From contig CM034130.1 of NCBI GenBank assembly GCA_019914995.1, positions 4,216,001 to 4,280,000 on the forward strand: a stretch of DNA of 64,000 bases, written 5' to 3'. Numbering within the stretch: the stretch's first letter is position 1; every line of letters begins with the position of its first letter. This document shows, piece by piece, positions 28,120-45,300 of the stretch. The notes below the pieces were generated by a model that was not told where the DNA came from, did not search any database, and worked only from the letters and a program-made list of their open reading frames with translations. The DNA comes from Acanthochlamys bracteata. Taxonomy: Eukaryota; Streptophyta; Magnoliopsida; Pandanales; Velloziaceae. The translations under genes were made by a program, and so were the position numbers.

Positions 28120-29463
28120 AACCAAAGTGAAGTTATTGGGCCCAACATCTAGGCCAACGAGAGAGATAAAAGAAATAATGAATGACGATTATCATGGGCT
28201 AACAGCGAGTTTATGAAGCTATTTTACTTTCTCCCTTTTGAGTTCAGACCAGGACGAAGCAAATAAAATTCCTAGCCATCCATCAGCGAGGGACTCTTGG
28301 GAGGACGGCTATTCACACACAGCTACGTGATCCACACTGGGAAAAGTCTTTCTTCTTTTCTTTCCATCTTTATTTATTGATTTTGAGGTGAAGCGAATTT
28401 CTTCTCTAGAGAGGGATTTTTACGATGAACAAGAATAGGGGATTCGGATTGGCTACCGAGAAATTTGGGGGGTGTTTTGTTTTGCATTTGTCTTATTTTG
28501 ACGAGTGGGATTCCTAAGGAAATTTGGGAAGCTATAAAGGGGTGTAGGACAGATAAGGGGGAGAGCGGACAAAGGTGAACAGAGGGCCGAAGTAGATCCA
28601 GAACGAATATCAGAGTAGGAATTGGAACAGGATAGGTAAACAGAGCTCGACGGCAGACCGGCAGCAAGCATCCAAATTTGATTTTCTTCCAGCCTTATGT
28701 TTCTTTCAATGATATGACTGCTTGTATTATTAATTGTGATAAAACCCTAGTTGAATATGTTTGAGTTCTTGAACATGTGGTGAGAAGTAATTCTTGAATG
28801 CATTGTTGTTAATCTTTATGTTAACTGAAATTTAGACTTTGAATTTAAATGCTTAATCAATATTGAATTTGAAATTTGAATTATTTGTTAAATTTTGTTT
28901 GCGGGAACCAATCAAAATATAAATGATCCTAGGATTAATAAATATTATTATTATTTTTTAAATGAAAGATAATATTATTGCATGATTTATGATTTGGAAA
29001 TCCATTTCTGATTTAATTCTAAACTCGACTAAAGTTAGAACAAATTAGAGATAGGTGATTCTATATTGGATCAAGTTAGAATCATAATTTGAAATTTGAT
29101 CTAAGGATTGGATAAATGTATTATGTACAAAATTTTCACATTAGTCAATATCAAAACTCACAATTGTTTTAAAATTCAAGCCAAGGATACTAGCGATGGA
29201 TTATAGAATTTCAGTTATTCTATCATCTCTATTTACTAAAAGTTTCACTGTTTGAGTATTTGATTTTGGTTTCTATACGTATTTGTAGTTTTGATTAACA
29301 ATCTTTATTCTATTATATACTTTGTGAGATTGGTTTGAGTTATAGTTAGCTTTTATCCCTGTGGATCGAATCTGTTATTTGGTATACGGTAGACGACAAT
29401 CGTGCACTTACGGAATAAACTAGAATAGAATTTCTAGGTTTTCTTGAGATTTTAGCTTCATCA
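28120..29463 (+). mobile_element. 5' LTR of second Athila/Tat-like Gypsy element
   Basis: The right edge ...TTTAGCTTCATCA sits just before a decayed primer site. The segment from about 28870 matches, in inverted orientation, the LTRs at 4100 and 10808 (for example the block around AACAAATTAGAGATAGGTG and GGATCGAATCTGTTATTTGG). A TATA candidate CTATAAAGGGG lies at 28532. The left limit is approximate; a length near 1.3 kb fits the copy at 4100. Confidence 0.55.
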
Positions 29464-29469
29464 AGTTCT

Positions 29470-29484
29470 TAGCACCATTGTAGG
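29470..29484 (+). other. Decayed primer binding site
   Basis: TAGCACCATTGTAGG, seven bases inside the LTR, corresponds to TGGCGCCATTGCCG of the element at 10788 with substitutions typical of CpG and CpNpG decay. Confidence 0.55.
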
Positions 29485-29589
29485 AAATTATTTTTGCTTA
29501 ACTTTGATTTATTTTAGTCTCTCTTAGAAAATTTGGGTTTTGCTTGAAATTTGCATTTAGAGCATTTTAGCATTTGCATTGCACTTTTA

Positions 29590-31420
29590 GGTTTTTTCAT
29601 TAGTGCATGATAACTCACTCTCGAACTTGAGAGAACTTAAGACAACTGTTACGAGGTCAATCATCTCGTAAATTTGGTCTTGAACTTGAGAGAACTGTTA
29701 CGAGAATTACACATGAGCATAGAAATCAGCTGAACATAATGGACCGAGACCAAGAAATTGATCATCTATGTAGACTTTTGAGAACATATTCTCTTCCCGA
29801 AAGCAGTTGTATGCCTTCTTCTTGCATTACTTTACCGGACATAATTGCCTTACATTTTGAACTCAAACCTTCCATGATTCAACTTCTCCCTTCATTCTAC
29901 GTGTAAACAAATTATGAGGGTCCTTATCTTCATGCTAAGAATTTTTATGAAATCTATACAACTTTGAAGATTAATGGAGTCTCAGATGAAGAAATTCGAC
30001 TTCATCTCTTTCCTTTTTTTATTAAAGGAGAAAGCAAATGCGTAGTTTAATACTTTTGAGGCACAATCCATCTAAACTTGGGATCGGTTGTCGTAGAAAT
30101 TCTTACAAAAGTTCTATCTTACGCAGAAAACCCAAGCCTTACATAAGGAAATTAAGAACTTCTAGCAGAGAGAAGGTGAGTTATTCTTTGAGGCATGAAA
30201 TCCTTTTAACGATCTATTATAGAAGTGTCCTCACCATGGTTTTTAAAGAAGAGAACATTTTTATGAGGGTGTCTTACATCAGAGTAGGCAAATTATAGAT
30301 GCTGATTATGGTGGTGTTCTGACGGTAAAACTGAGAAAGAAGTATTTGAATTATTCGAGCGACTTAGTGCTAATTCTCAATAGTGAGATTATATAAGAGA
30401 TCGTGGAGTAGGAAAGAGGGGTGTATCAGATAGGTTTCTCCAATAGTGTTGATGCAAATTTTGATACTTTAGAGAAGAGTTTGACATGATTATCAATCTG
30501 GCGTCCAAAGGTTATAGAAGAGAGGATTGTGAAATTTGTGCTTAACATTGATCATAAGACTCGTAATTGTCCTTGAATGGCTCATATCCATAATTTGTAC
30601 GGGAACAAGCCAATCAAATTAGCAATTATCAAAAATCTAGGAATGATCCTTTTTCTAATACTTATAATCATGGTTGGAGATATCTTCCTAACTTTTCATT
30701 GTCAAACAATAAGAATTTACAAAATCTAATTTCTAAACCTTGGCAAGCATAAGCACCCTTTCAAACTGAACCTACTAAGGAAACAATCGATATATTGCAA
30801 CATCTCATGTAGATGCAATATTAGATTGATTTTCAAAACTCTACAAATGAACCCCTCTTCAACTTGAAACCTTCCAGCATGTGACTCAACAAGTTATTTC
30901 AAAGGTTGAGACACAAGTTAGATAGATTGCATCTCATCTCAGTGAATATGAGAGAGGCAAATTTCCTAGCAACTCGAACTCAATCTAGAAATTATGAAGT
31001 TGCCAAAGCCAAGCTATCGTGATACTTAGAAATGGCAAAAAAGTTGACAATGAGGTGACAGATGTAGATACTGAATCTTCAAATCTCATTTTTCTTCGCT
31101 CCTCATGTCTTCTAAGAAGGAGGATCAGTTAAAGGATTTTATGGAGATGTTTAAAAAGATGGAAATCAGTATAGCTATGTCAATTGTAATTAAGCAAATT
31201 CCAACGTATGCTAAGTTGAATTGGGGAGCGAGCATAAATTTCATACCGTATTCAGTGTATATTAAACGTAGATTGGATAAACTCTCCAACCTCTATGACT
31301 TCGCAACTTGCTGATCGTTTAGTAAAGATGCCTAGTGGTATCTTGAGGATGCATTACTGGAAGTTGTTGAATTCATCAAGCACGCTGATTTTGCTGTGCA
31401 AGAAGGTTATAAAAAATAAT
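29590..31420 (+). pseudogene. Gypsy gag-protease remnant (Athila/Tat-like)
   Basis: Plus-strand frames show MDRDQEIDHLCRL (29740), LKPSMIQLLPSFY and LKINGVSDEEIRLHLFPF (29863-30015), a CEIC-type knuckle near 30533, then EDQLKDFMEMFKKMEI (31120-31167) and IPTYAKLNW (31198-31224), which is the stretch leading into the aspartic protease in these elements, and DALLEVVEF near 31350. Numerous stops and frame changes make it a pseudogene. It is closely related to the gag at 10020-10620. The element stops at about 31420 where minus-strand florendovirus sequence begins; RT, integrase and the 3' LTR are not found in the window. Confidence 0.75.
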
Positions 31421-31429
31421 CTTAGACTA

Positions 31430-32250
31430 GCCACTTGTTTCTCAACACAAGTGGCTACTATTTCTACTATTTTTTTAGCACGAGTAGCTACTGTTCCTAC
31501 AGTTTGTTTTGTCTTCTTAGCAGGTTTGAGGTTCTTTGTTAGATATAATTTAGCCTTACATTTTTGAGTTGTCTACCTAAATTTGCTTTTTTATTGAGAA
31601 GCTGTGCTCTTTCTTGTCTGGGATATGCTACCATGTCATTAAGATTTTTAACTGTTTCTACTGAAGTGGTATAATGATCACAGAAGATGACCTTTTCTGA
31701 AGTGTCCTTAGCGATCTTGTAAGAAATTTGTGGATCTATATGTGCAGTTCTTAATGATGGAGATAAATAAAAACTTTATGCTTAGACGATCTCTGGCTGA
31801 ACCTAATACTTCTATGAATGATTGATACCTACGTATGATGCATTGGGAAGGTCGTTATGCTTTCTAAAACTTCTACTCATGTATGAAAAACTCATGGTAG
31901 TCGACATCTAAATACCACATAAAATGAAAAATTCCTTTTCTCATGCACAAAATGATATATAAGTGCATTCATACTTGCTAAAAAATACTTCTGCTTATAT
32001 TTCTAGAAAGCTTGCCATAAATTATCTTATAAACATTGTTTTTCTTTGGATAAACTCATTTCTTGTCTATCTAAAGGTCTAAAAGTGATATTGTTAGGAG
32101 GAAAACTAATTAATTTATGCTTACCGAGAAGAATCTTTTCTAAGTTATTATATAGAATAGAAGTCTAAAGGCTAGATCTTTGTACTGGATTAGTGGCGTT
32201 CTGAAAACTAGTTCTTACTACTTGCATTGGCGAAATTTTTGGTGGAGGCT
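31430..32250 (-). pseudogene. Region after RNase H, possible florendovirus ORF2 remnant
   Basis: Minus-strand frames give low-complexity, Lys/Gln/Asn-rich peptides with heptad-like spacing (for example RQERAQLLNKKANLGRQLK near 31590), broken by stops. Position downstream of RNase H is where florendoviruses carry a second ORF of unknown function. I do not recognise the sequence; placement is the only argument. Confidence 0.35.
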
Positions 32251-32269
32251 ACATTTGTAGAAAGATAAG

Positions 32270-32700
32270 GGGTTAGAAATCTACTATGAATATCTGCTAG
32301 CGTATTATCTTTACCTTTAATATGTTCTATTTCTATTCGCAAAAAATTATTGTTAATTTATTTATAAAATTAGGCCATTTTTTCATTCATCTTATTATAA
32401 AACTTAACTATAGCTTCACAATCAGTTCTAAGAATTATTTCTGGTTTTGATAAAATAAATAACCTAAATGCATCTAATGCATAATTAATAGCTAATAATT
32501 CAGATTCAATACTGATCTATTTCTCTTTACTTTATATTGACCGCTACTGTATCTAACCACTTTCTTTAGTATTTTTAGGGGAATATTTACTCAATTTTGC
32601 TAATAGAAATGATCCCCAACCAAGATGAGGACCATCAGTTTCAATAATAAGATTATCTTATTCTAATAGTAATTCTAGAGGTAGTATATGTTTTATAAGT
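32270..32700 (-). pseudogene. Florendovirus RNase H remnant
   Basis: Minus-strand frames include IETDGPHLGWGSFLLAKL (about 32600-32655), ESELLAINYALDAF (about 32465-32510), ILRTDCEAIVKFY (about 32400-32440) and IEHIKGKD (about 32310-32330). These correspond to the successive acidic catalytic positions of caulimovirid RNase H, which degrades the RNA of the RNA:DNA hybrid. Several frame changes disrupt it. The first Asp (ETDG) and the central TDCEA residues remain visible. Confidence 0.8.
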
Positions 32701-33192
32701 CCGGAAGAGGCATTACTAACCACTCAAAATATCCTTCTGGACTAGTAAAAGCTGTCCAGGGAATACTATCTTCATGCATTCTAATTTGCCAAAACCTGAC
32801 TTACAATCAAACATACTAAATAATATTCTCTCCTTTATTCTTTCTAACAATTCATTTTTATTAGGAATAAGATTTCCATCATCTATTGTATTATCATTTA
32901 ATCTTTTATAATTTATCACCATTCTAGATTTTTCTCTTACTATTTAACTATGATTTCATACTAAGGCTAGTGATCTATGAGGACTTTCTGGTCTTCGTAT
33001 TACTCCTAATTTAAGTAATTCTTCTTTATGCATCTTAAAATCTTTTCTATCTACTTCAGATGCTTCTATTGTTCCTCCTTTAATAACTAAATTCTCATTC
33101 AATAACCTTAAATGACAACATGCTTTTTCTTTTATACCAATATTTTTGTATGTCTTCTCTTATAATTTCTAATTTTTCTAACTTAGAAATTA
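32700..33192 (-). pseudogene. Florendovirus reverse transcriptase remnant, catalytic core deleted
   Basis: The minus strand has an ESPHRSLALV block (about 32965-33000), then an open frame at 32922-32716 with MVINYKRLND, IPNKNELLERI and SMFDCKSGF (the motif A Asp is in FDCKSG), continuing out of frame to a GYFEWLVMP block near 32710. The next recognisable residues already belong to RNase H, so the segment with the YxDD box, thumb and connection is gone. The junction lies near 32705. The sequence 5' of 33192 continues on the other side of the solo LTR at 34646. Confidence 0.85.
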
Positions 33193-33197
33193 GCTGT

Positions 33198-34640
33198 TGT
33201 TAGGTTTTTCCTGTAAGATTAACTCAAGAGGGAAGGGATGAATTGAGTTAGTCAATAAAAATTTTCGTCAAGCTTAGTTATCCTACTGGTAGCAGGCTTA
33301 CAGCCAGCTGTGTCAATTCTGTAACCTGCAGACAAAGAGAGTTAAAGTGTTTACTGACATATTTAAAAAAGATAGTACTCAGGATATTTAACGTGGTTCG
33401 GCAAACCCCTTTGCCTACATCCACAGTCGCTCTATCACCAGAGCCAAAACTTCACTAAACTTTTAATAAGCTATAAATACACCAAGAGCAAAGTGCTTCA
33501 CCAAGCACACTTATTCTTACCGGGTTTCTTCACCAAGACAACCCCTAACAGCCTACTGGACACATCTGTCCCTCTGGCTAATTTGCTAGCTATTACAAGG
33601 TCTAAGAACTTTCACCAAGCTCCACCTGAGCTTTCTTTTCCAGTGTCCGCAGCACCACCTTCACAAAGTCAGTAATAGGTTACAAGAAAATAAACAGAAA
33701 TTGAGCACAGGATCTATCTCATTAAGATTATGTGTTCATGAAGTGTTTCTAATGAGATGATCAGAGAGGTTGCTGAGAGAGATTTCTTCAGTGTGATCAG
33801 CAGCAAGATTTTTGTTGTTTGCGTAGAGTAGTAGTGTTCTTGTATGTCTCTGTTTTTCTTGTATACTCTCTCTCTTCTTTTTCTTTGTTGCTCTGTCTCC
33901 CTTCTTATAGTGTTTCGTCTCTGTGCAAGAACCGTTGAAGAACGTTGCCGTTTGCGCTCTTTTCCATTGGTGGTTCTTCATGTCAGAAAGGGAGCAGATT
34001 TGCCCAGCGGTTAACCAACCGCTTCCTTAATTGCTTTCGGTTGTCTTTTGTGCAATGTCTCCATATCATTAAATGCATTGTAAAAATTTGAATTTGCCGC
34101 CAGTGATTATAAGCTGAATTTTGCTAAGTTGCTGTCTGAAATAAAAGAGCTGAGTTGGCTTATCCATATTTAATGCATTGCTGGTTGACTGCTTGATTTG
34201 ATTAGAGATCTTGACTTGTATAATGTGCATTCTTCCCTTGATTATAGAGCTTTCCCTTTCTGTGAAAAAGAAGATGATTTTTGCTCGTTGTAGATCTTCT
34301 ATTTGAATTGCTTTAGTGCGTTGTGAGTCTAGAGGATTTTTTAAGCAAGGAAAATTTTGTTACCGTTGAACCCAAAGCTCTGTTTCGAAACAGAGAAGTC
34401 TTCTTGTGCTTCAGTGGTTAAGCAGCTGATTGTAATGTGACTATGGCATCCTCTGTTCCGTATGCTGTTTAATTTGTAGAGGCATAATAGTTGGTTGCAT
34501 GATGGCTGTTATTGTCTGCTGTAAATAAAATGATCTTTGTTTGTCTAATCCTGCAAAACTTGATTTCAGATTATTAGTTTAATATAAATCATAATTTTTA
34601 ATTCTTTATTATCATCAAAATTGTCTTTATGGTTCCAACA
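33198..34640. mobile_element. Solo LTR (Copia, SIRE-like) inserted in the florendovirus
   Basis: A 1443-bp segment begins TGTTAGG and ends CCAACA, and is flanked by the perfect 5-bp duplication GCTGT (33193-33197, 34641-34645). It contains GTGGTTCGGCAAACC followed by CCTACATCCACAG (about 33390-33427), a block I associate with SIRE-type Copia LTRs, and a TATA candidate (GCTATAAATACACC at 33470). No internal region remains, so it is the product of LTR-LTR recombination. Orientation is probably plus from the TATA box. The open frames inside are leader-like and not genes. Confidence 0.85.
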
Positions 34641-34819
34641 GCTGTGTTAAACTTGTTTCTTTCATTGAATTATATGTTAACTATAAGGGTTCTCCTATAA
34701 ATTCTAAAGATTCTAATTGATCTATATCTGTTAAAGCCTCTTCTAATTGAGAAAGATATTCATGTATTGCTGTATGAGGTTCTTCCAATTCTTTTGTAGA
34801 TTCTCCTAATTGACACTAG

Positions 34820-35357
34820 TGGGGGTGGCAAATTTCGACCCGACCTGAAAAGGTCGGGTTCGGATCAAGTCTTAGTCGGGTTCGGATTGATTTTGGATTG
34901 ACCCGAAAATGACCTGAAAAATTTAAACGGATTCGGGTCGACCCGTTTAACCCGTATAACTATTTATATAGTATATACTACTTAATAATTAAAAAATAAT
35001 AGCAAAAAATTTGAATTTAATTTGTATATATATATTTTTAATTTATCTTAATACTAACTAATTTTTATTTAATTCATAAATTTTGTCAAAATTAATATTT
35101 TTTTAAAATATATTATAATTAATAATATATATATATATATATATATATGATTAAAAATTAATATTTATAATTTTTATTTAATAATTTAATTTTTAAATGG
35201 GTCGATCCGAGTTCGATCCGATTATAAATAGGTTGGGTTAGAGTTGACAATTTTGACCCATATAAATAAATGGGTCGGGTTAGGATTGAATAATTTTGAT
35301 TCGGTTATTATATGGGTCGACCCAGAACCGACCCATGAATCCATATTGCCACCCCTA
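34820..35357. mobile_element. Non-autonomous hAT element, copy D, inside the florendovirus
   Basis: A 538-bp element with ends TGGGGGTGGCAA and TTGCCACCCCTA and the perfect 8-bp duplication GACACTAG (34812-34819, 35358-35365). Same family as copies A-C but with a shorter AT-rich middle that includes an (AT)n run at about 35127-35148. It separates the virus protease from the RT-proximal sequence. Confidence 0.92.
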
Positions 35358-35589
35358 GACACTAGCCCTGCCCTGTCTAGGACAAGGAAAAAGTTTTTCT
35401 TGAGTTGTTAGTTTTTGTTGTTGAAAAAGATGTACCATACGCACCACGCTTTTTGGCGTACTTTGATGTAGGGTTAGTTGGACTAACTAAGGAATGTCTA
35501 TGTAATAGAAAAAATCGTTAGCTAGAGTAACACTACCATTATCTTTTAATAAAAAGGAAAACCTAAAATTACATTATGCTTTAAGCTTA

Positions 35590-35870
35590 AACTACAGACA
35601 AGGGTCTGAGTTGTAGGTAATGTATATTCTGTAACAATTAGTCTTAAAAGTAATCTTAGTACCTATTAGAATAATAGTATTACAAGTATAAGTATCTCCA
35701 TTCATTTGTGTAGCAACTAAAGGCTGCTTAGTTTTTCCAAAATATTTTTCTGCGATTATATCTGGAGTTTATATAGTATCAGTACATCCTGTGTCTATCA
35801 TTGCTAAGGTTTCTACTACATAGTTTTCGATACGTATTTAGACATTACTTTTAATGTTCCTATCTCACTA
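35590..35870 (-). pseudogene. Florendovirus aspartic protease remnant
   Basis: The minus strand encodes ETLAMIDTGCTDTI (active site DTG at about 35790), followed after a stop by EKYFGKTKQPLVATQMNGD and further caulimovirid protease-like sequence. The enzyme would cut the viral polyprotein. At least one stop lies within the domain (just after the active-site block). Confidence 0.8.
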
Positions 35871-36010
35871 TAATTATTACAAACAAGTATAGGTTCTTCT
35901 ACTAAATTTAAATTTGCTATTTCTTCTATTTCTGGTGTAGGATTGGGTTCTGGAATTGGCTCAGGAGTAGGCCTAAAACTAAAATCTTCTTGATATTTAC
36001 TACTCTCAGG

Positions 36011-36355
36011 TTAATCTTGATTTGCTTCTAATCTTTTTAATCTTTGGTTTATCCTAAAAACCTGTCCTTGTAAGTAATCAATTCTAGTTTCTATAGTTTC
36101 CTTATATTTAGGATAATTATCTTGTAAACTTAAATATCTTATACAACCTTCTAAGAAACAAAATCCACATCTGGCTTTATTCGTTGTGCTAGGATACCAT
36201 TTACAAAAAAAACATGCAGTACTATCTATTCCTTCATATTTTTTCCAAACATGGTGGCATTCTTCATTCATATATTCTAAATTTTCAGAAAAATAAGGAT
36301 CTAAATCTCCGAATTCATCATCTGACGAATCATAATTAATATTTATTCCTGACAT
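36011..36355 (-). pseudogene. Florendovirus Cys-rich segment between coat protein and protease
   Basis: A 114-codon open frame with an acidic start (DSSDDEFGDLDP) and the run CFFC, 11 residues, CGFC, 4 residues, C, 2 residues, Y. This is the C-2x-C-11x-C-2x-C-4x-C-2x-C arrangement reported for florendoviruses with the last Cys replaced by Tyr. It is followed by a predicted coiled coil (RIDYLQGQVFRINQRLKRL). Its role is unknown; a metal-binding fold is the usual proposal. The start codon may be artificial, because in intact viruses the segment is part of the polyprotein. Confidence 0.75.
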
Positions 36356-36499
36356 TTCTCTAACAAAATCTTCTTGTTGTTCATCTCTATATTTTTCTTC
36401 TGATGATTCATCATCTAAGATTTTAGAATCTTATTCTATTAGTGTTTCATTAACACATTCTAATAATTTTATATTCTTATTATGAAGATTTCTACATTT

Positions 36500-37600
36500 A
36501 GGGGATGCATTACGTAGATGTTCTTCACTATTACATTCAAAACATTTAAACTTCTTTCTATAGTTTCGTTTAGGGTTAACTCTTCCAACATTTTTATTTC
36601 TATCTAAATAAGGTTTCTTCTATTAGACCTTTCTAAATAATACCTCTTTTTAGAATAAGGTCTTCTTCGTGTATATCTCCTTCTAGATTTTGGTTCTCTA
36701 TAATCCTGTTTAGGTACATACATATTATTATAAAAGGCATATTGCCCTTTCTTAAGTTGTGTGGGAGTTTGAATCTCACTATAGTTTCTTGTTAATACTT
36801 TTATAATATGAACTACTCTATGTGTTATAGTCAAAAGTGTATTGGGATTCTCTTTAACGGGTGCTAATTTCTCCCATTCCCTTTCTATTTCTCTACCTAA
36901 TTCTCCTGAAAATTTTCTAAATAATCTTTTACCATATTCTTGGTCAAAACCAGCTCCTGAAACCATATTAACATATTCATTACAAAATCTCTTAGCATTT
37001 CTACATCTCTAAGTTATATTTTTTCTATATATAATAACGCGTCTGCTTACATAGATACTAATCCTAATTAGGATCTTCTCTTATTACTAATTGATGTATC
37101 TGGTTTACGAAATTATAAGTTAGGTCTTGAAGATAAAAGGTGCTTATAACCTTGACGATGTTTTCTTTTGAAACATCCCATAATCCTCTTACTGATTCAC
37201 CTAAGATATTTATAAATATTTAAATGCATTTTCACTAGATGTACAGTCTTTCACATATCTTCAAAAGCTTCCTATTACTAAATTCTTTCAAACGTCTGGA
37301 AATTGTTCTATAATTGAGGTCATGTGATGTACGATTTAAAACTTGAGCTTCCCCTATAGTCTGGAAATTTGGTTCTAATGCTTTTCCCTTAGACTTACTT
37401 AACATTACTAAAGTCTTGATCTGCTAGGATATATCTCTTCTTGGTACATTACAATAACTATAACTTGGTGCTTCTGTTGTAGGTTCGCTTCTCTGAAATG
37501 GGCTAATAGAAGATGAAGGCTAGACTCTGTCGATTCTGTAAGCTCTATTTGACTAATTTCACTTATTGATTCTAACTTTCTCGGACTAAAATACTTTATT
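36500..37600 (-). pseudogene. Florendovirus coat protein remnant with zinc knuckle
   Basis: The open part at 36966-36604 contains FDQEYGKRLFRKF, TQLKKGQYAFYNNMYVPK and an Arg/Tyr/Lys-rich tail, as in caulimovirid coat proteins, then a knuckle KCFECNSEEHLRNAS (about 36505-36552). The knuckle has Cys-x2-Cys-x4-His but Ser where the fourth ligand is expected. Upstream coat sequence to about 37600 is fragmentary. The protein would form the capsid and bind nucleic acid. Confidence 0.7.
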
Positions 37601-37887
37601 TTGAAAATAATTATCTATTTCTTCTAATTTGCTAGTTCTGTTTTAATAAGTGCTACAACATCTAGAAGTTTCTGTTTAATAGGTTGGACATAATCTATAG
37701 TTACCTCACCACTCCTTATTTTTTGAAGAAATATTTATCTTATTCTCAAAATTTCTAATCGTTTTTTCCATAATTCTCTAATTTTATCATGTCTTTCTTT
37801 AAACTTAATGAACACAGTCTTCAGTTAAATTATCTTTACGAATATTTTTTTAGCAATCATAATATAACATTCATTCTCGTCCAAATT

Positions 37888-38091
37888 CTAAGAAATTTCC
37901 ATTCTTAATAATTCTTCAAAAGTTCTAACAGATTCCATGCTGTTTTCTTGAAAGAGAGTTACTAAGGGATCTTCTAAAATATTAGAAAATTCATTCATAC
38001 ATTTTTCTGCCTCATTATCTTCTAAAGTTAAGACTGGATTATAATCTGCAAATCTAACACTAGTGTTATTTCTAGAATTCTTGTACATCAT
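37888..38091 (-). pseudogene. Florendovirus polyprotein fragment between movement and coat regions
   Basis: A 67-codon open piece, acidic, with YNPVLTLEDNEAEKCMNEF. No domain is recognised. It lies in the linker between the movement-protein and coat-protein regions and shares their strand and decay. Confidence 0.5.
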
Positions 38092-38239
38092 ACTAGTTTT
38101 TGGAACGAGAACTTTGATTTTTGATGAAATTCATCAAGAATCCATTCTCTTCAAGCTAAAAGCTGTAGGATCTATCTTATTAGCTTTAATCATTTTTATA
38201 CCTTTCGAGCTAACTAGCTGCGTAACATCATCCATTTCT

Positions 38240-39010
38240 AATTTATACTTTAACTTCTCCATTATTAGTTAATCGACCTATGAATCCTAATAAAATTAAT
38301 AAGTTACTACATGATGTTTTAGCTTCATATCCTTTGGTTTTTTTTCCAATTTTAAGATGTCGCACACCTTTAGTAATACTAGTTAAAAAATTCGGACAAC
38401 AATAAAACATGCTTATGTTTTGGGACATATCTATTTCTATTGTTGCTATGGCTGCTTGTTCTGAACCTGTCCATAAATTATCATAAAAGTAAAGAAATAA
38501 CTTAGTTCCTAGGTAACTTCTATCTAATCTTTGATTCCAATTACTAATAATCCTAAATGCATAAAATTAAACTGTGAGCATCTTAAGGCTTTATAAGCTT
38601 CTAAATTTATATTGTTTAATACTACATATTGACCTCCTAGACATTCTACTTCATCTCGTTTTCTTACAAAGAAATGTGTCTGATTAACAAAGTTTTCTAT
38701 TTTACCTATATGATATAATTCTCTGGAAGAAATAAGGTCCAAACATTTTGTGTTAAATGTTCTAAATTTTGCTCTGGATCTATAATTGAACCTAATTCAA
38801 TTAAATACTTATTGCTTCTATTAAAAAGTTTACTCATAAATGTCTGTTTAGAACTACTAGGAACAATTTTACCTAAACTGCTAATGTTCTGGAACTTCCA
38901 CCAAATGTAGTCATTTTATAGAGGCAATTTTAATTCTCTAGTTGGCCTTGAGGTCTATCAATACCACTGATTTTAGTTATATCAAGACTGTCTACTTTTC
39001 ATATATGGTC
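38240..39010 (-). pseudogene. Florendovirus movement protein remnant
   Basis: Minus-strand frames contain ECLGGQYVVLNN and CSQFNFMHLGLLVIGIKD (38742-38524), then LGTKLFLYFYDNLWTG and TIEIDMSQN (about 38390-38500) and a Lys-rich end. This is the order of the 30K-type movement protein core of Caulimoviridae, which opens plasmodesmata to virus particles. Stops separate the pieces at about 38524 and elsewhere. The sequence further right (39010-40279) is the N-terminal part of the polyprotein and leader, with open fragments such as 39630-39430, but no recognised domain. Confidence 0.75.
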
Positions 39011-40279
39011 GTCTATTTTTTTATTTAACTTGTTCTTTGCTTTTCTTCTAATAATAAATATAGCTTAGTATGTATTTTTAACAAAAGAATAATGATAGTA
39101 TTATTTAGTTTAATTATAGTTTTGTCTTGTGCAGGGTTAGGATCAAACTTACTAAATCCTTCGGCTGGAGACAAATACTGTTCTAATAAAGCTTACATAT
39201 AATCTTTCATAAAGTAAATGATTTTCTAAAGAGTTATGTTAAGTTATCTACCTTAGAGTTTAAAGTCTGAAGTTGTCTTTCTATGGACTGTAAACTAATA
39301 TTCTATTAGAGTAATTATGTATAAATTCTAAACTAAACTGAAAATTATTTTGAAGAAAATATGAATTCGTTCTTATATAGTTCGTATATCTGCAAATAAG
39401 AGAGATAAATCTTCCATTGATTTCTTTACTCAAGAAAATTCTAAATGAGTACAAAAATTTAAGACTAAATCTATTAAATTATTTAATTCAGGGTCAGCAC
39501 TATGGAGGAGATGTTTAAAATCAGTATTATTGTTAAAGTTACACTTAAGTTTACACTTATCAAGCATAATTGCTATCCTAGAACTATGGGAGACTTCTAA
39601 ATCTAAACAATCAAATCTCTTCAGATCCACTTTCTTCTTCTTCAGTAATTTCTGCTAAATTTAAATTTTCAAAAAAGGTTTCAAAATTTACTATATATTC
39701 TTCTCTAACTATAAGGTATGATTTTTCGTCTATTTCTCTGTACTGTGGAACAAGTTGATATAACATTTGAATAGCTTCATAATTTCTTCTCCTATGTCTT
39801 CTTCTAAAGACAATAATTCTTTTAAAGGAAAATAAAATTTTCTTCTAAGAAGTACTGCATCTTCGTTATTTGGTCTAAATCAACAACTATAAAAAATTTG
39901 TCTAAAGTTACACCTGTTGACTGAATACGAAATTCACTTAGTTCTAGAAATTTAGAGTGTTTTACCTTAATAGGTACCGTCATACGCTATTAATTTTGTT
40001 TCTTCAATGTTATGAATAAATTCTCTACTTATTTAGAGCTAAAAAAGATAATGAGTTGTATAAGCTTCACTAAAAGTTATTAATACAAGAGGATCTTCTA
40101 CTTAAGGAACTATTAACTTACGTTCATTCTTTTTATTGATTTTACCAAGAGCAAAGTATCTAATTATTTTAAGAAATTCAAGAATTTTTAAACTTTCTAG
40201 ATCATAGATTTATAAACATTATAATTCTATTACTAGGCTTAATCTAACTATTAATAGTTAAATTAAATGAAGTAATCTA

Positions 40280-40291
40280 GCTCTAATACCA
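40280..40291 (-). other. Florendovirus tRNA-Met primer binding site
   Basis: The minus strand reads TGGTATTAGAGC, one base from TGGTATCAGAGC, the complement of the initiator tRNA-Met 3' end that primes minus-strand synthesis in Caulimoviridae. By convention it marks position 1 of the viral genome, so the integrated copy starts almost exactly at its origin. Confidence 0.8.
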
Positions 40292-41465
40292 AATTGAGAG
40301 GGGGACGTTTACAAAAATTAAAAAGATATAACTATTATAGTTATAATTTTAAAAGCTACATATTTAAAAAGAAGATATAGACTGAGAAAAGCAGAAAACA
40401 GATAAAGTCACCGGATAATTAAAATTTTTGTCCTATCATTGTCACTCCAAATGCTAATCTCCACGAAATATATCCAACTCAATTTGACGAAATTGTCATT
40501 GTAGTGAAAGTTATCCACAGCAAAATCTTGATATATTCTCGCGAATCCTTTCCTATAGAACTTAGTAGAACTGTTGAAAAATCTCTCCTAGATTGTTCCC
40601 TTCCTATTATGGTTAGTTTGAAGAGCACCATTCTCGTGTCTATCATTTTTAGTCTATTCACCCTATCTAACCTAGCGAAACGGAAGGTGCAGGTCCTCCG
40701 TCCCTATTTTGTAATGAAATCTTTTCGCTTGCTCCCGCAGCAAGATGTTGTGGTGAACCGTAGATAATATGTTCGAAGCATGGCTCTTTTTAGCCTATCT
40801 TCAGTTCCCGAGTGTTCGACAGCCTTGCTTCGGATAGTTCTGCGTATTCGATTGAGTGACCAAGATATGATTTTGTTGATAGAATACTCCTCAAATTTTT
40901 TTACTTACTTGCAAGAGACAAACTTTCAGAAGTCAGTGGTTTTGTAACTGTAATTGTCATATTACAAATCCAATCCCAGCTCTCATATTAACAATTTTGG
41001 ACTACAGTCAGCGACCACAATGCTATCAATTACGTCCTACTTTAAGTCAAAATCGTGATCTCGATACTATTGTCTTTAGTTCATTAATAGATTCGACCTG
41101 ACGACGCCGACCTCAAAATCCGAATTGATGCTAACCATTTCATCTAGTCGTTATAATTAAATATACTTATGACCACTCTTGATGAAAAATATAAATCCTA
41201 TGAGTGAAAGCGAACTTGAAAGGAAAGAGCGCAACATAGCTAACTTATCGACCTCATACAAGTAAAATGGAACCATGAACTAAATTATCGAACACTATGT
41301 AACAACTATGACCTAGATATAACTTAGTAGACATTGAGTCAAACCTACGACCGGGCTTTGGAAAATCAGGCTAACGTTGTTTGATTTCCGCATATCTCAG
41401 TCTCATGTAGTGGAAATCAGGCTAACAATGTATGATTTCCACATGAAGTCGTTACCTTAAAGCCA
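40292..41465. other. Unassigned sequence right of the florendovirus
   Basis: The first ~150 bp may be viral leader upstream of the primer site. The open frame 40504-40767 (+) has a hydrophobic middle but no recognised domain. A short duplicated block, AAATCAGGCTAAC followed by TGATTTCC, occurs at about 41365 and 41416. Confidence 0.3.
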
Positions 41466-42380
41466 ACTTCTGAGAGCAACCTTAAAATGCCAACTATCAA
41501 TCTTACGAGTGAACTTTAATTATCCGGAACTTTATGACCGGCACCACACACGCTGAAAACATTTATGAGGTTCATATAAGAAAATACTTTTTGCCCTGAA
41601 GTCCTTTTTCTGAGCCATAATGCGAGAGTTAGACAAATCGAAAGTGAAGGTCGATGGCGAAAGCCATCACCAACCACTGTGGTCACTGTCGAAAGGCAAT
41701 CGAAATTGAAAATTAGATGAAAAAAATGGAACACTTTTTGAAGCAAAAACGAAATAGATTTGGTGCTGCGGCATGATTTTGCAACATTATGCATGGTTTC
41801 AAGCACTTTGGAAGCAATAATAGTGGCATTTCAAGCTCAAAAATTTATAAAATACTTTTTTAATATTCGAAGAGACATTTTTACTGCCCAATTTCTAATG
41901 CGTGAATTTAGAATTAACCACAATGCAACAATTACGTCCTACGTTTTAGCTCAAGTAACAACGATTTGAAGTCGACTATGTTGTGAACGAATCTCCTAGG
42001 TTGCAAGCAATCGCATGGAGTGCACAAAATGGACATGTATAGACCTATATTGAACTGAAATACTATCTATTTAGAGTTGACTATTTTTATGAAGAAATCT
42101 CGTGTGTCGCATGCGGTCACATACGTTGGACCTGTTGCGATCAATTTTGTGCTGAGATATTGACCAGAATGTAGCAATTACGACCCATTTTGTAACTCAG
42201 TTAACGATTAGTTGAGTCGACATTGTATTGTAGATCCCATTGTGTTGACCGCATGCAGTGGAGTTAACAAAATCATGATTAGAAATGGAATTCCAGGTAA
42301 TGACTTAATGTCTACTATCAATTGTACGAGTAAAAATTAATTGAGATGGATGGAAGACATTTACTCTCGACCCATATGTT
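41466..42380. repeat. Diverged direct and tandem repeats
   Basis: Related blocks recur: ACTATCAATCTTACGAGTGAA near 41490 and ACTATCAATTGTACGAGTAAA near 42318; CAATTACGTCCTAC near 41032 and 41931 and CAATTACGACCCA near 42176; and the series with GTCGACTATG...GCATGGAGT, GTTGACTATT...GCATGCGGT and GTCGACATTG...GCATGCAGT at 41972-42290. This suggests direct repeats about 0.83-0.9 kb apart with ~125-bp subrepeats, perhaps old LTR or satellite-like material. No coding sequence accompanies them. Confidence 0.45.
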
Positions 42381-45300
42381 CTGGGATAGAGTCACCGTGC
42401 ACACTACGACGACGACATTGTAAAGTTCACGGAAGAAAAGTAACTACCTTTTGTTGCGATTTTCTTTATTCCTATGTCGCGAGGGTTGTACAAGTACAGG
42501 TTTATCGATTGAGGCTATAGCAGAATTAAGAGAATAGTCAAAGTTTAAAAGAAAGGATTGATTGAAAAATAGTTGCAGTAGGAGAGAAATTGTTCTAGGA
42601 TTGAGAGATGATCTTTGGAATTTTTGAGAAATCATCACTCGATTTGAAATTTTGTAGTGATTGCGACATTTTAAATTTAAATAAGTCAAAAAGTTTTTCT
42701 TTTTAAAAGATGTGTCTACCCTGTTCTCGGGCCTAAATTATAAAAGTAAATTTTTAGACTAAATAGACGTGTTTTGCCCAGCAAGAGCCTAGCACAAAAT
42801 GGTGCACGATAGAAAGACAGCCTTGCCCCAATACAACCCTATGGCGCAAAAGTTGATCGCATTAACGGAAGCCGTTAGATGGTGGATTCAATAGCTGAGT
42901 GTGAGGCACAGCGCACAATGGGTAGCGGTGGCTATGCCGCTATCCCCTCCCATATGGGTGGGATAGGAGCACCACGTATATGTTGAATCGCCCACTTAAA
43001 ATGTTTGAAACTCAATCTCCACTGGTTTGTTAAAATCAATTCTAGAAAGAATAGCTTTTTTAAAAAATAAAGAAAAAGAATGTGCAAATAAAGATATCAT
43101 CTTATTGAGTGTAGGAAATAGCGGTCGAACTTAGTACACCTTGGCATGGGTAATTTTTGCCCTTACCTTAATAACAATGACTAATTTTCTTAAAACTCAT
43201 CGATAATCGGCTCAAAATTCTTACCTATTTCAAGTAAGTCGTTATACACCCAAAATTGCAACAATTGCCCAAAAATAAATATAAAATTAATGATATTTAC
43301 TAACAATTTAATCCTACAAATAAAATAATAGCACATGTGCTATGATTGTGTAGGGGAGTCCCATTAATGAATATGTCTTCATTGACGTAGTTACATCACC
43401 TTTTCGCTTACAACTAACAGTGCCACAAAAGAGCCTTCCAACGTTGGGAAATCATCCAGCAAGTGTGTCACCGCTAAGTTAAACGATCAACTTTTGCGAC
43501 TCCCTAAAAGTTTCAACTTCCAAATTATGCCAAGCTTAATTTGAAGGAATCTTCATCCTGATTCTCAAAAAGATCCTTATATACATTTTCTAATTAGAGT
43601 CCTACTCAACTTACTAACTCGTTAAATTCTAGAGATATATCTCCTATATCACTCCCTTAATGCTATCTACAACTTCCAGGAGACAGTCACCACCTTCCTC
43701 ACTTATGAGTCCAATAGTCCTGTAGATCACCTTAAGATCGAACTCCAAGGTTCTGCCCCATATTTTAAAAATAACATATCGTATTTTCTGCCTTCAATAT
43801 TTTTCCCCTATAGCACTTGGTGAATATGTTGCGAAGTAGTTGCAAGATCTTCAGGTAGACCTAAGATAGTCTGTCAAAACAATGTTCAATATTTTAAGGT
43901 TGATCTTATTTTTATCGATATTTTTTCTGAATTATCACAGACTTTCTAGAAATTCGAACTGAGGTCACCTTTATCTCTACAGGAATTTACTCTTCTAATC
44001 CTTTATACCCAGCAACATTTTTAGTGTACAACTGATCAATCAAACAAGCAACCTAAAAACGATGTAATGAGTAAATCCTGACAACTTTGTGACTTACGAT
44101 CAAATTATGACCAAAATACAAAAACTTTATGACCTTTCTACATAATTACAACAGTATTATGAGCAAAGTATTACAACTTTACGACATTACGACCAAATTA
44201 TGACACCCTTACTACCACATTACGACAACTTTAAGACGATATGACAAAGTTACGACAATAGGAAGGCAGTAAGACATGATGATGACATGACGATCTTACG
44301 ACGATGTTATGACTTAAAATGTAACAAAACATAACAATATAGACATAAAGAAGAGTAGACGAGATTTTGATGGCTGACAAGATGGATTTCGCTAGAGAGT
44401 AGACGGGATCTATAGCTAATGTGTTGATTTGGCTGAAGAGTAGATGGGTTCAAGAGCTGAAGGGTTTGATTTTGCTCAAGGGACAATGAGAATAATGGCT
44501 ACAGCTGTGAATTTTGTGGATGATACTGGGGTTTGAGTAAGGAAATAGAAGGTTCATGGTCACTGAGTAGGAGCCACAAAGAGATCCTATTAAAAATAAT
44601 GATCGAACGGAGAAAGATTCCCTGTAATAAGATAAGAATATTTTTATCAATTTAAGTTGAAAATAGGTTAGAAAAGTCTACTTTGAAAACTAGGTTATAA
44701 ACACAAAGTTAGAAGAAAAAGGGTTATTACAGCAAGAACCCTTTAAATGTACTTGTAAGCGGCTTATTTCATGAAAAAAGAAGCACTGCATTCAAATTGG
44801 TTACTATTGTGCAGTACTTATAAAAAGATTGTTTAGAATATATTAGTTAGCTAAACGTTGATATAACGGTAAACTTGTGCAAAAGAGAAAACAAATATTA
44901 AAGATAATCTATAAACATATGAAATAAGTCCATTTCTCTTACAACTAGTTTATATATATGATTTTGACCAATTAATTATGAAAATATTACTTATTTTCTA
45001 AGTAGTCATGATATGCCGCCATGGTGGATGGTCAAAAATTAAGAATATCCATTACTAATTTTGGTTTTACTTCAATATTCTTTTGTGAAATGACAAAGTC
45101 TTTTATATAAGGAATACTTTGAAGAAGAACTTGTAAAGTATCACGAGTCTGGTCTTCTTACATTGGACCCTACGGCATTGAACCACATCTCCTATACTAA
45201 TCCTTTTTTCTGAAAACTGGTTAGAAAGGATGTTCAGAATCTTTTACAAGTTAGAGATTTGAGGGAACGGAAGAAGAACACTCAAAAGATAGCTTTAAAA

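What the first reader, a model, noticed from the sequence alone, without database searches (positions are those of the whole stretch)
31430..40291. Near genome-length endogenous florendovirus starting at its own primer site
The sequence shows a tRNA-Met primer site followed by movement, coat, Cys-rich, protease, RT and RNase H regions in viral order. The C-2x-C-11x-C-2x-C-4x-C segment assigns it to Florendovirus. The right boundary coincides almost exactly with position 1 of the viral genome, which points to integration of a linear replication product opened at the minus-strand discontinuity.
Basis: partly seen in the sequence, partly recalled or inferred. Interest (0 to 1): 0.75.

Follow-up and report, generated by a model that had tools for sequence, protein, structure and literature searches.

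The report
Decayed plant pararetrovirus fossil, florendovirus-like
This stretch of a plant genome is an old, broken copy of a florendovirus-like DNA virus; it does not stop at the virus's own start point as first thought, but its sister copies often do, and they carry a gene with a nucleic-acid-binding domain that published descriptions of such viruses do not mention.

Summary
The element is real: a decayed endogenous caulimovirid on the minus strand, about 40397 to 31425, with primer site, movement, coat, Cys-rich, protease, partial RT, RNase H and partial ORF2 in viral order. A 1443-bp solo LTR and a 538-bp MITE interrupt it, and a ~0.46-kb deletion removes the RT active site. The right-boundary claim fails: viral sequence shared with nine sibling places continues 101-106 bp past 40291, and ~1.4 kb of the circular genome is missing at the other end. 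The Cys motif is one a review gives for badnaviruses, so it does not prove Florendovirus. Florendovirus remains likely from gene order, an RT outside the badnavirus and caulimovirus sets, and an ORF2 homologue in rice and wheat elements, but no labelled reference could be compared. Two sibling results go further. Ends pile up at the primer site (11 of 22 independent leader-side ends, 12 of 28 intergenic-side ends), so opening at the minus-strand discontinuity is plausible for the family, not for this copy. And ORF2 carries an RNase H1 N-terminal/Cauli_VI domain (11 of 11 stop-free copies tested), where published accounts report no homology.

The parts
40436..42600 (-). right flank: fragment of a dispersed host repeat (family A)
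   Evidence: 10 of 10 fetched copies match up to 40436 (one of them to 40427) and go on past that point in a conserved way where the window does not
40398..40435 (-). right junction, up to 38 bp assigned to neither side (filler or decayed)
   Evidence: between the last viral and last host match
40292..40397 (-). end of the viral intergenic region/leader upstream of the primer site; contradicts an end at 40291
   Evidence: nine sibling places match to 40392-40397, a tenth to 40379
40280..40291 (-). tRNA-Met primer binding site (viral position 1), 1 mismatch
   Evidence: exact in siblings
39985..40177 (-). ~193 bp in the leader, absent from most sibling copies
38423..39844 (-). N-terminal part of ORF1 and movement-protein region (MP core ~38879-38423)
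   Evidence: tblastn to siblings; a sibling piece has PF01107 at 3.8e-4, below its cut-off
36607..38130 (-). coat protein region; conserved domain in 37008-36607
   Evidence: PF22909 2.2e-12
36434..36619 (-). zinc-knuckle-like stretch (no Pfam match above cut-off)
   Evidence: reading; conserved in siblings
36014..36430 (-). Cys-rich segment CX2CX11CX2CX4C; sixth Cys lost here, present in 3 siblings
35416..35816 (-). aspartic protease region
   Evidence: PF21024 0.003 in the window; 5.3e-16 in sibling L108, which aligns here
34820..35357 (-). nested hAT-type MITE, 538 bp, with 8-bp target-site duplication CTAGTGTC at 35365-35358 and 34819-34812
   Evidence: the class is recalled from terminal sequence and duplication length
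33198..34640 (-). nested solo LTR, 1443 bp, TG...CA, 5-bp duplication ACAGC at 34645-34641 and 33197-33193
32693..33196 (-). N-terminal half of reverse transcriptase; ~0.46-kb deletion at 32693-32708 removes the YIDD site
32295..32696 (-). RNase H domain
   Evidence: PF17917 3.2e-5
31426..32023 (-). 5' part of ORF2, with a remnant of the RNase H1 N-terminal/Cauli_VI domain at about 31924-31800
   Evidence: Pfam PF01693 in siblings
31398..31424 (-). left junction, ~27 bp assigned to neither side
30000..31397 (-). left flank: fragment of a different dispersed host element (family B)
   Evidence: 21 copies at 82-84% over ~1.08 kb, more at lower identity; six of six fetched copies continue past the junction, and not into family A

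Best explanation
A decayed endogenous caulimovirid, most likely a florendovirus. A piece of viral DNA of about 80% of a genome, starting ~105 bp before the primer site and ending in mid-ORF2, was captured at a chromosomal break between two unrelated transposon fragments by end joining that left ~30-bp unassigned stretches at both joints. It then took a MITE, a solo LTR, an RT deletion and many stops, and codes for nothing now. Shown: content, order, both ends, inserts, flanks, copy family. Inferred: capture by end joining, the genus, and that the source molecule was linear.
For: Coat, RNase H and RT matches. 40 places, its own included, for the Cys-rich piece in the same genome (40 of 59 candidates scored). 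Siblings give full AP, RT and RNase H domains. Both viral ends fixed against siblings and against host copies. Nested inserts with target-site duplications. RT tree: the sibling RT lies outside a 38-row set holding three badnaviruses (99) and a 28-row set holding two caulimoviruses (99), in a 19-row set (86) with elements of dandelion, pigeonpea and Ancistrocladus; it is 57% identical to a rice element and 42-46% to named badnaviruses. ORF2 homologues in rice, wheat and dandelion proteins, as expected if ORF2 is florendovirus-specific (PMC4241990, Results part 1 read). ORF2 follows the RT-RNase H stretch in another frame in two siblings.
Against: No labelled florendovirus or petuvirus sequence could be compared: seven scans of viral contigs gave none, so the genus rests on inference. 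The tree does not resolve whether the query's 19-row set is nearer to the rice-wheat-ryegrass set (16 rows, 100) or to the badnavirus set: all three hang from one weak, open fork (82), and the program warns of long branches. The window's own pieces discriminate poorly: RTb ranks a caulimovirus (strawberry vein banding virus) fifth, and RHa ranks two badnaviruses 11th and 12th. The estimated genome, ~8.5-8.8 kb, is at or above the top of the published 7.2-8.5 kb. No (TA)n lies near the ends within 29000-42500; the only one is inside the MITE. The empty site was not found.
Confidence: 0.72

Rival explanations
1. One reading: a linear genome opened exactly at the minus-strand discontinuity was integrated here, so that the copy begins at viral position 1.
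For: Sibling copies do show an excess of ends at the primer site: 11 of 22 independent leader-side ends within -16..+7 and 12 of 28 independent intergenic-side ends within -16..+13.
Against: In this copy viral sequence runs 101-106 bp past position 1, and the other end lies ~1.4 kb short of it.
Confidence: 0.03
2. The virus is not a florendovirus but another endogenous genus with a P6/TAV-type gene after the RT, or a petuvirus-like one.
For: ORF2 has a Cauli_VI domain, while PMC5902531 says no TAV homologue is recognisable by protein BLAST in Florendovirus or Petuvirus (passage seen). No genus reference was available, and the RT tree leaves the deeper forks open.
Against: ORF2 homologues, with the same domain some 40-100 residues after RNase H, occur in rice and wheat proteins; a passage of PMC5766536 lists Florendovirus (with Yendovirus, Badnavirus and Orendovirus) for monocots and Petuvirus for dicots. 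The layout MP-CP-AP-RT-RNase H then ORF2 is that given for florendoviruses.
Confidence: 0.25
3. The copy arose by break-up of a longer tandem or rearranged viral array, so that its present ends are later deletion points and not integration ends.
For: Sibling clusters on C11, C12 and C3 hold head-to-tail and inverted viral pieces. The two flanks are different transposon fragments that do not continue into each other.
Against: This copy stands alone in the window: viral pieces find nothing else in the 64 kb apart from one 29-bp match.
Confidence: 0.2

Closest known systems
Florendovirus (tentative genus, Caulimoviridae; Geering et al. 2014, PMC4241990)
   Same: polyprotein order MP-CP(zinc finger)-AP-RT-RNase H, then a separate ORF2; tRNA-Met site as position 1; many decayed copies in a plant genome; ORF2 homologue in rice proteins
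   Different: ORF2 here has an RNase H1 N-terminal/Cauli_VI domain, whereas the papers say ORF2 lacks homology; genome estimate ~8.5-8.8 kb against 7.2-8.5 kb; no (TA)n at this locus; genus not tested against labelled references
Badnavirus
   Same: six-Cys motif CX2CX11CX2CX4CX2C
   Different: a further gene after RNase H with a Cauli_VI domain; RT outside the set that holds the badnaviruses
Caulimovirus P6/TAV (gene VI)
   Same: Cauli_VI domain (by Pfam name) in the gene that follows the RT gene; the place of gene VI is recalled
   Different: no similarity beyond the ~45-residue domain was shown here; RT outside the set that holds the two caulimoviruses
Endogenous cotton pararetroviral element (PMC10458927)
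   Same: its locus is described as delimited on both sides by the Met-tRNA site, as many siblings here
   Different: this window's copy is not so delimited; in the cotton element several separate ORFs precede the RT and it has a fuller transactivator gene (passages seen)

Membership tests
Caulimoviridae | caulimovirid coat domain, RT nearer to a caulimovirid than to Ty3, tRNA-Met primer site | tested here: met
   PF22909 2.2e-12; window RT piece 3.2e-11 to 8r0s_A against 0.027 and 0.16 to Ty3-type RTs, sibling RT 5.4e-108 against 2.9e-57; primer site
Florendovirus | RT/RNase H (AP-RT-RH1) inside the florendovirus clade | tested here: inconclusive
   sibling RT outside badnavirus and caulimovirus sets, with plant endogenous elements; relation to the rice-wheat-ryegrass set unresolved; no labelled florendovirus or PVCV in the tree
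Florendovirus | domain order MP-CP/ZnF-AP-RT-RH1 followed by ORF2 | tested here: met
   MP and zinc finger are below Pfam cut-offs
Florendovirus | one unbroken ORF1 and an ORF2 in another frame | tested here: inconclusive
   ORF2 in another frame than the RT-RNase H stretch in two siblings; continuity of ORF1 not tested
Florendovirus | ORF2 without homology to known domains | tested here: not met
   PF01693 above its cut-off in 11 of 11 stop-free copies tested. This may correct the published description rather than exclude membership
Florendovirus | ORF2 homologue shared with rice elements | tested here: met
   blastp of sibling ORF2 to rice P0035 2e-9 and P0011 2e-6, wheat P0014 5e-7, in a set of 120 proteins, without composition correction; that these rice proteins are the published rice florendovirus was not tested
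Florendovirus | genome of 7.2-8.5 kb | tested here: inconclusive
   ~8.5 kb unit read from one sibling array (positions), ~8.8 kb from the window with its losses added back in length only
Florendovirus | frequent (TA)n at insertion sites | tested here: not met
   none near either end; the published share is 14-51% of loci in five genomes (passage), so this is weak
Badnavirus | second Cys motif CX2CX11CX2CX4CX2C | tested here: met
   three siblings; five of six Cys in the window
Badnavirus | RT inside the badnavirus clade | tested here: not met
   the 38-row set with the three badnavirus rows excludes the query (support 99)
Petuvirus | RT inside the petuvirus clade | not testable with these tools
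   no labelled petuvirus sequence obtained

The most novel reading that the evidence does not exclude
ORF2 of this florendovirus-like lineage, and of its monocot relatives, is a P6/TAV-type protein built on an RNase H1 N-terminal (hybrid-binding) domain, so the virus group described as lacking a TAV homologue has one; and florendovirus DNA enters genomes chiefly as linear molecules opened at the minus-strand discontinuity, joined to each other and to host DNA by end joining.
Probability: 0.4. Interest if true: 0.62.

Novelty: new member of a known kind. Interest (0 to 1): 0.45.

Why it matters
The window's copy is an ordinary virus fossil. Its family in the same genome makes two open points testable. 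First, how viruses without an integrase get into plant chromosomes: the review PMC10377300 calls the mechanisms speculative (section 3.1 read), and a pile-up of ends at the gap of the minus strand points to the molecule that is captured. Second, what florendovirus ORF2 is: reviews call it unknown and without homologues, whereas it has the domain that Pfam shares between RNase H1 and caulimovirus gene VI protein, in the gene that follows the RT.

Tried and rejected
Reference caulimovirids in IMG/VR: seven scans, with window coat, RT and Cys-rich pieces, two small alignments, sibling ORF2 and sibling RT, found no relative. Protein searches with the window coat piece and the sibling ORF2 found nothing. 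Structure prediction was not used: siblings fetched from the genome are not on its list of allowed inputs, and a lone 134-residue piece seemed poor value.

Empty site: the continuation of right-flank copies was compared with the window's left flank, and of left-flank copies with the right flank; only short weak matches of one locus (L017) appeared. Poly(A) or RNA-derived ends at about -226: seven hits end near an A-rich tract; I take them as alignment ends and count those examined as background. Splicing as the cause of the ~193-bp leader difference: no GT...AG was seen at its edges by eye. Raw match ends are not proof of breakpoints: in the coat control 13 of 41 rows end together at query 374, apparently through divergence of one sub-group, and five of the nine interior ends in the movement-protein control fall at 363-387; so the primer-site ends were looked at in sequence.

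Full report
What is there. The element lies on the minus strand. Sense runs from about 40397 down to 31425. The primer site is 40291-40280 (TGGTATTAGAGC, one mismatch to the tRNA-Met site); six sites with up to two mismatches in 64 kb are not unusual by themselves (3.45 expected), but sibling copies in the same genome show the exact site at the homologous place. Pfam finds the caulimovirus coat domain in 36607-37008 (2.2e-12) and an RNase H fragment in 32373-32516 (3.2e-5, just under its cut-off), and a sub-threshold protease in 35595-35768. An RT piece matches PDB chain 8r0s_A ('Enzymatic polyprotein'; I recall it as the cauliflower mosaic virus enzyme) at 3.2e-11 and Ty3-type RTs only at 0.027 and 0.16. 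Unaltered open stretches of siblings L107 and L108 give Peptidase_A3B (5.3e-16), RVT_1 (4.3e-37) and RNase H (1.8e-13) domains and align in order to the window. The movement protein is the weakest assignment: a sibling piece scores 3.8e-4 to PF01107, under its cut-off.

Decay and later inserts. A solo LTR (34640-33198, TG...CA, duplication ACAGC) and a hAT-type MITE (35357-34820, duplication CTAGTGTC) sit in the protease-RT region. The LTR family has 39 further scored places at 89-94%, three of them shorter (40 of 3253 candidates scored). Between 32708 and 32693 about 460 bp present in four siblings are missing, and in sibling L107 that stretch holds YIDD. Only two ORFs of 100 aa or more overlap 29500-42500, of 114 and 120 aa.

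The right boundary. It does. Nine sibling places match the window up to 40392-40397, immediately upstream of their own primer sites or at their intergenic ends. Host sequence starts at 40436: 10 of 10 fetched copies of that dispersed repeat match up to there (one to 40427) and continue beyond it together, while the window does not. The junction is thus in 40398-40435.

The left boundary. 15 of 16 sibling loci stop matching at 31422-31427, one at 31522. Siblings with a continuous intergenic region place about 1.4 kb between that point and the sequence at 40393 (1363, 1400, 1426, 1446 and, in one, 2109 bp; from coordinates). Host sequence resumes at ~31397 as another repeat family. The copy therefore holds about 7.0 kb of virus. 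One sibling array on C1 gives a unit of ~8.5 kb (Cys-rich, primer site and coat positions, if it holds no inserts); the window's own lengths plus the missing 1.4 and 0.46 kb give ~8.8 kb. Neither end of the copy is at the discontinuity.

What the siblings say about integration. One search examined 36 leader rows, the window among them. 12 (11 independent; L070 and L073 share their flank) break within -16..+7 of the primer site, 11 break farther up (-27 to -525, the window among them), 10 go on as shared viral sequence to about -1 kb, the limit of the comparison, and 3 are otherwise (L047, L075, L076). Left out of the 36: L059 and L066, which lack most of the leader, and L046 and L078, whose matches begin at about +148 and +173; these would add ends outside the interval. 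On the intergenic side, one search took 31 loci, mostly and chosen as lacking a continuing leader, so that an end was expected in each; they give 28 independent ends, 12 of them within -16..+13 (L082, L083 and L086 of the 12 are less sharp). Binomial values of 7e-10 and 2e-5 are descriptive only, since the intervals were chosen after seeing the data. Several joints are plainly real: leader joined directly to a distant, mostly inverted viral piece in L045, L050, L058, L065 and L070 (L058, with its joint at about -6, was counted among the farther ends to be cautious), and intergenic ends followed within 20-110 bp by RT or ORF1 N-terminal pieces in L025 (both ends), L080 and L084. L028, L049, L051, L056 and L072 show no viral match in the 1.5 kb upstream. 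A search with a sibling query spanning the site shows starts at 196-211 and ends at 190-218 around the site at 206, though some of those rows proved on inspection to continue. The movement-protein and coat controls show clusters of raw match ends too (five at 363-387; 13 at 374), which is why raw ends alone were not trusted; I did not inspect those control ends in sequence. Rival readings of the excess are template switching at the primer site and recombination with host LTR elements that share it; L056 has a second primer-like site 34 bp upstream. Prior art: PMC10458927 describes a cotton locus delimited on both sides by the Met-tRNA motif (passage seen), and PMC4241990 a peach 1.2-mer running through the site (passage seen). 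The review PMC10377300, section 3.1 (read), does not name the discontinuity.

ORF2. In sibling L044 a 345-residue frame follows the RT-RNase H frame of L107 in another phase. It carries Pfam PF01693 (name Cauli_VI, described as RNase H1 N-terminal domain) at 1.8e-10. The other stop-free pieces tested do too: L042 and L108 (the same copy), and nine of nine; 11 of 11 distinct copies, all above the curated cut-off. Copies with stops in the domain were not tested; one search lists the matches, and the window is one of them, with a remnant of two stops (2.4e-16 to L044). The only PDB matches, both weak (0.016 and 0.06), are N-terminal domains of RNase H1, over the same residues. Blastp links ORF2 to the end of RT-RNase H proteins of rice (P0035, P0011), wheat (P0014) and dandelion (P0020, beyond the domain) (small subject set, no composition correction). 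The wheat protein has a sub-threshold PF01693 hit (0.059) after RNase H, the rice protein P0011 none up to E 1, and a database search with the sibling ORF2 found no protein at E 0.001. PMC4241990, PMC5902531 and PMC10377300 say that ORF2 has no recognised homologue, in the passages I saw. My searches for a report of this domain in florendoviruses showed none in their listings or in the passages read; only open-access text is covered. Function by analogy, not shown: binding of RNA:DNA hybrid or dsRNA during reverse transcription or in a viroplasm. Whether it descends from P6 or was taken from a host RNase H1 is open.

Genus. The tree (quick method, SH-aLRT only) used the sibling RT and 111 of the 120 listed hits (538 found); 9 were dropped for short overlap. 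The query sits in a five-row set (95) with a dandelion protein and three unnamed ones, inside a 19-row set (86). It is outside the 38-row set with the Dioscorea and sweet potato badnaviruses (99) and the 28-row set with strawberry vein banding and horseradish latent viruses (99); the genus of these named viruses is recalled. The rice-wheat-ryegrass set (100), the query's set and the badnavirus set meet in an open fork, so their order is unresolved. By identity the sibling RT is 57% to rice P0011, 42-46% to the named badnaviruses and 40-46% to the two caulimoviruses. With ORF2 and gene order this makes Florendovirus likely, not proven. The Cys motif does not decide it: it is complete in three siblings and is the motif given for badnaviruses in PMC4926197.

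Verdict. A true but ordinary florendovirus-like fossil whose claimed special feature, an end at viral position 1, is absent. The siblings make the wider idea plausible, and their ORF2 domain is the more surprising result.

Noticed in passing
L044:90-1124, L042, L041, L030, L109, L111 and others; window 31924-31800: ORF2 of the virus family has an RNase H1 N-terminal/Cauli_VI domain, where reviews report no homology.
   Followed up: yes
L028, L045, L048-L051, L053, L056, L065, L070, L072; L022-L026, L041, L079-L084, L086: Viral ends and viral-viral joints pile up at the tRNA-Met primer site in sibling copies.
   Followed up: yes
window 39985-40177: About 193 bp between primer site and first ORF are present, whole or in part, in this and seven or eight other places and absent from most; possibly a separate viral lineage.
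   Followed up: partly
G000 C11 1.60-1.65 Mb, C12 4.97-5.14 Mb, C3 6.46-6.63 Mb, C4 6.70-6.85 Mb: Dense clusters of viral copies, some head-to-tail, some inverted.
   Followed up: partly
L060, L061, L063, L064, L067, L069: A second viral sub-group with 92-96% identity among the pairs shown over the 1 kb before the primer site, closer to each other than the window is to any copy.
   Followed up: no
L056, 34 bp upstream of its primer site: A second primer-site-like sequence, perhaps from an LTR retrotransposon.
   Followed up: no
window 30135-30242 (-): Rfam snoR71 match just over the gathering score (41.9 against 40), inside the left-flank dispersed repeat.
   Followed up: no
P0058: A record labelled Corynebacterium holds an RT 61% identical to this plant virus RT over half its length; probably plant contamination of a bacterial assembly.
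   Followed up: no
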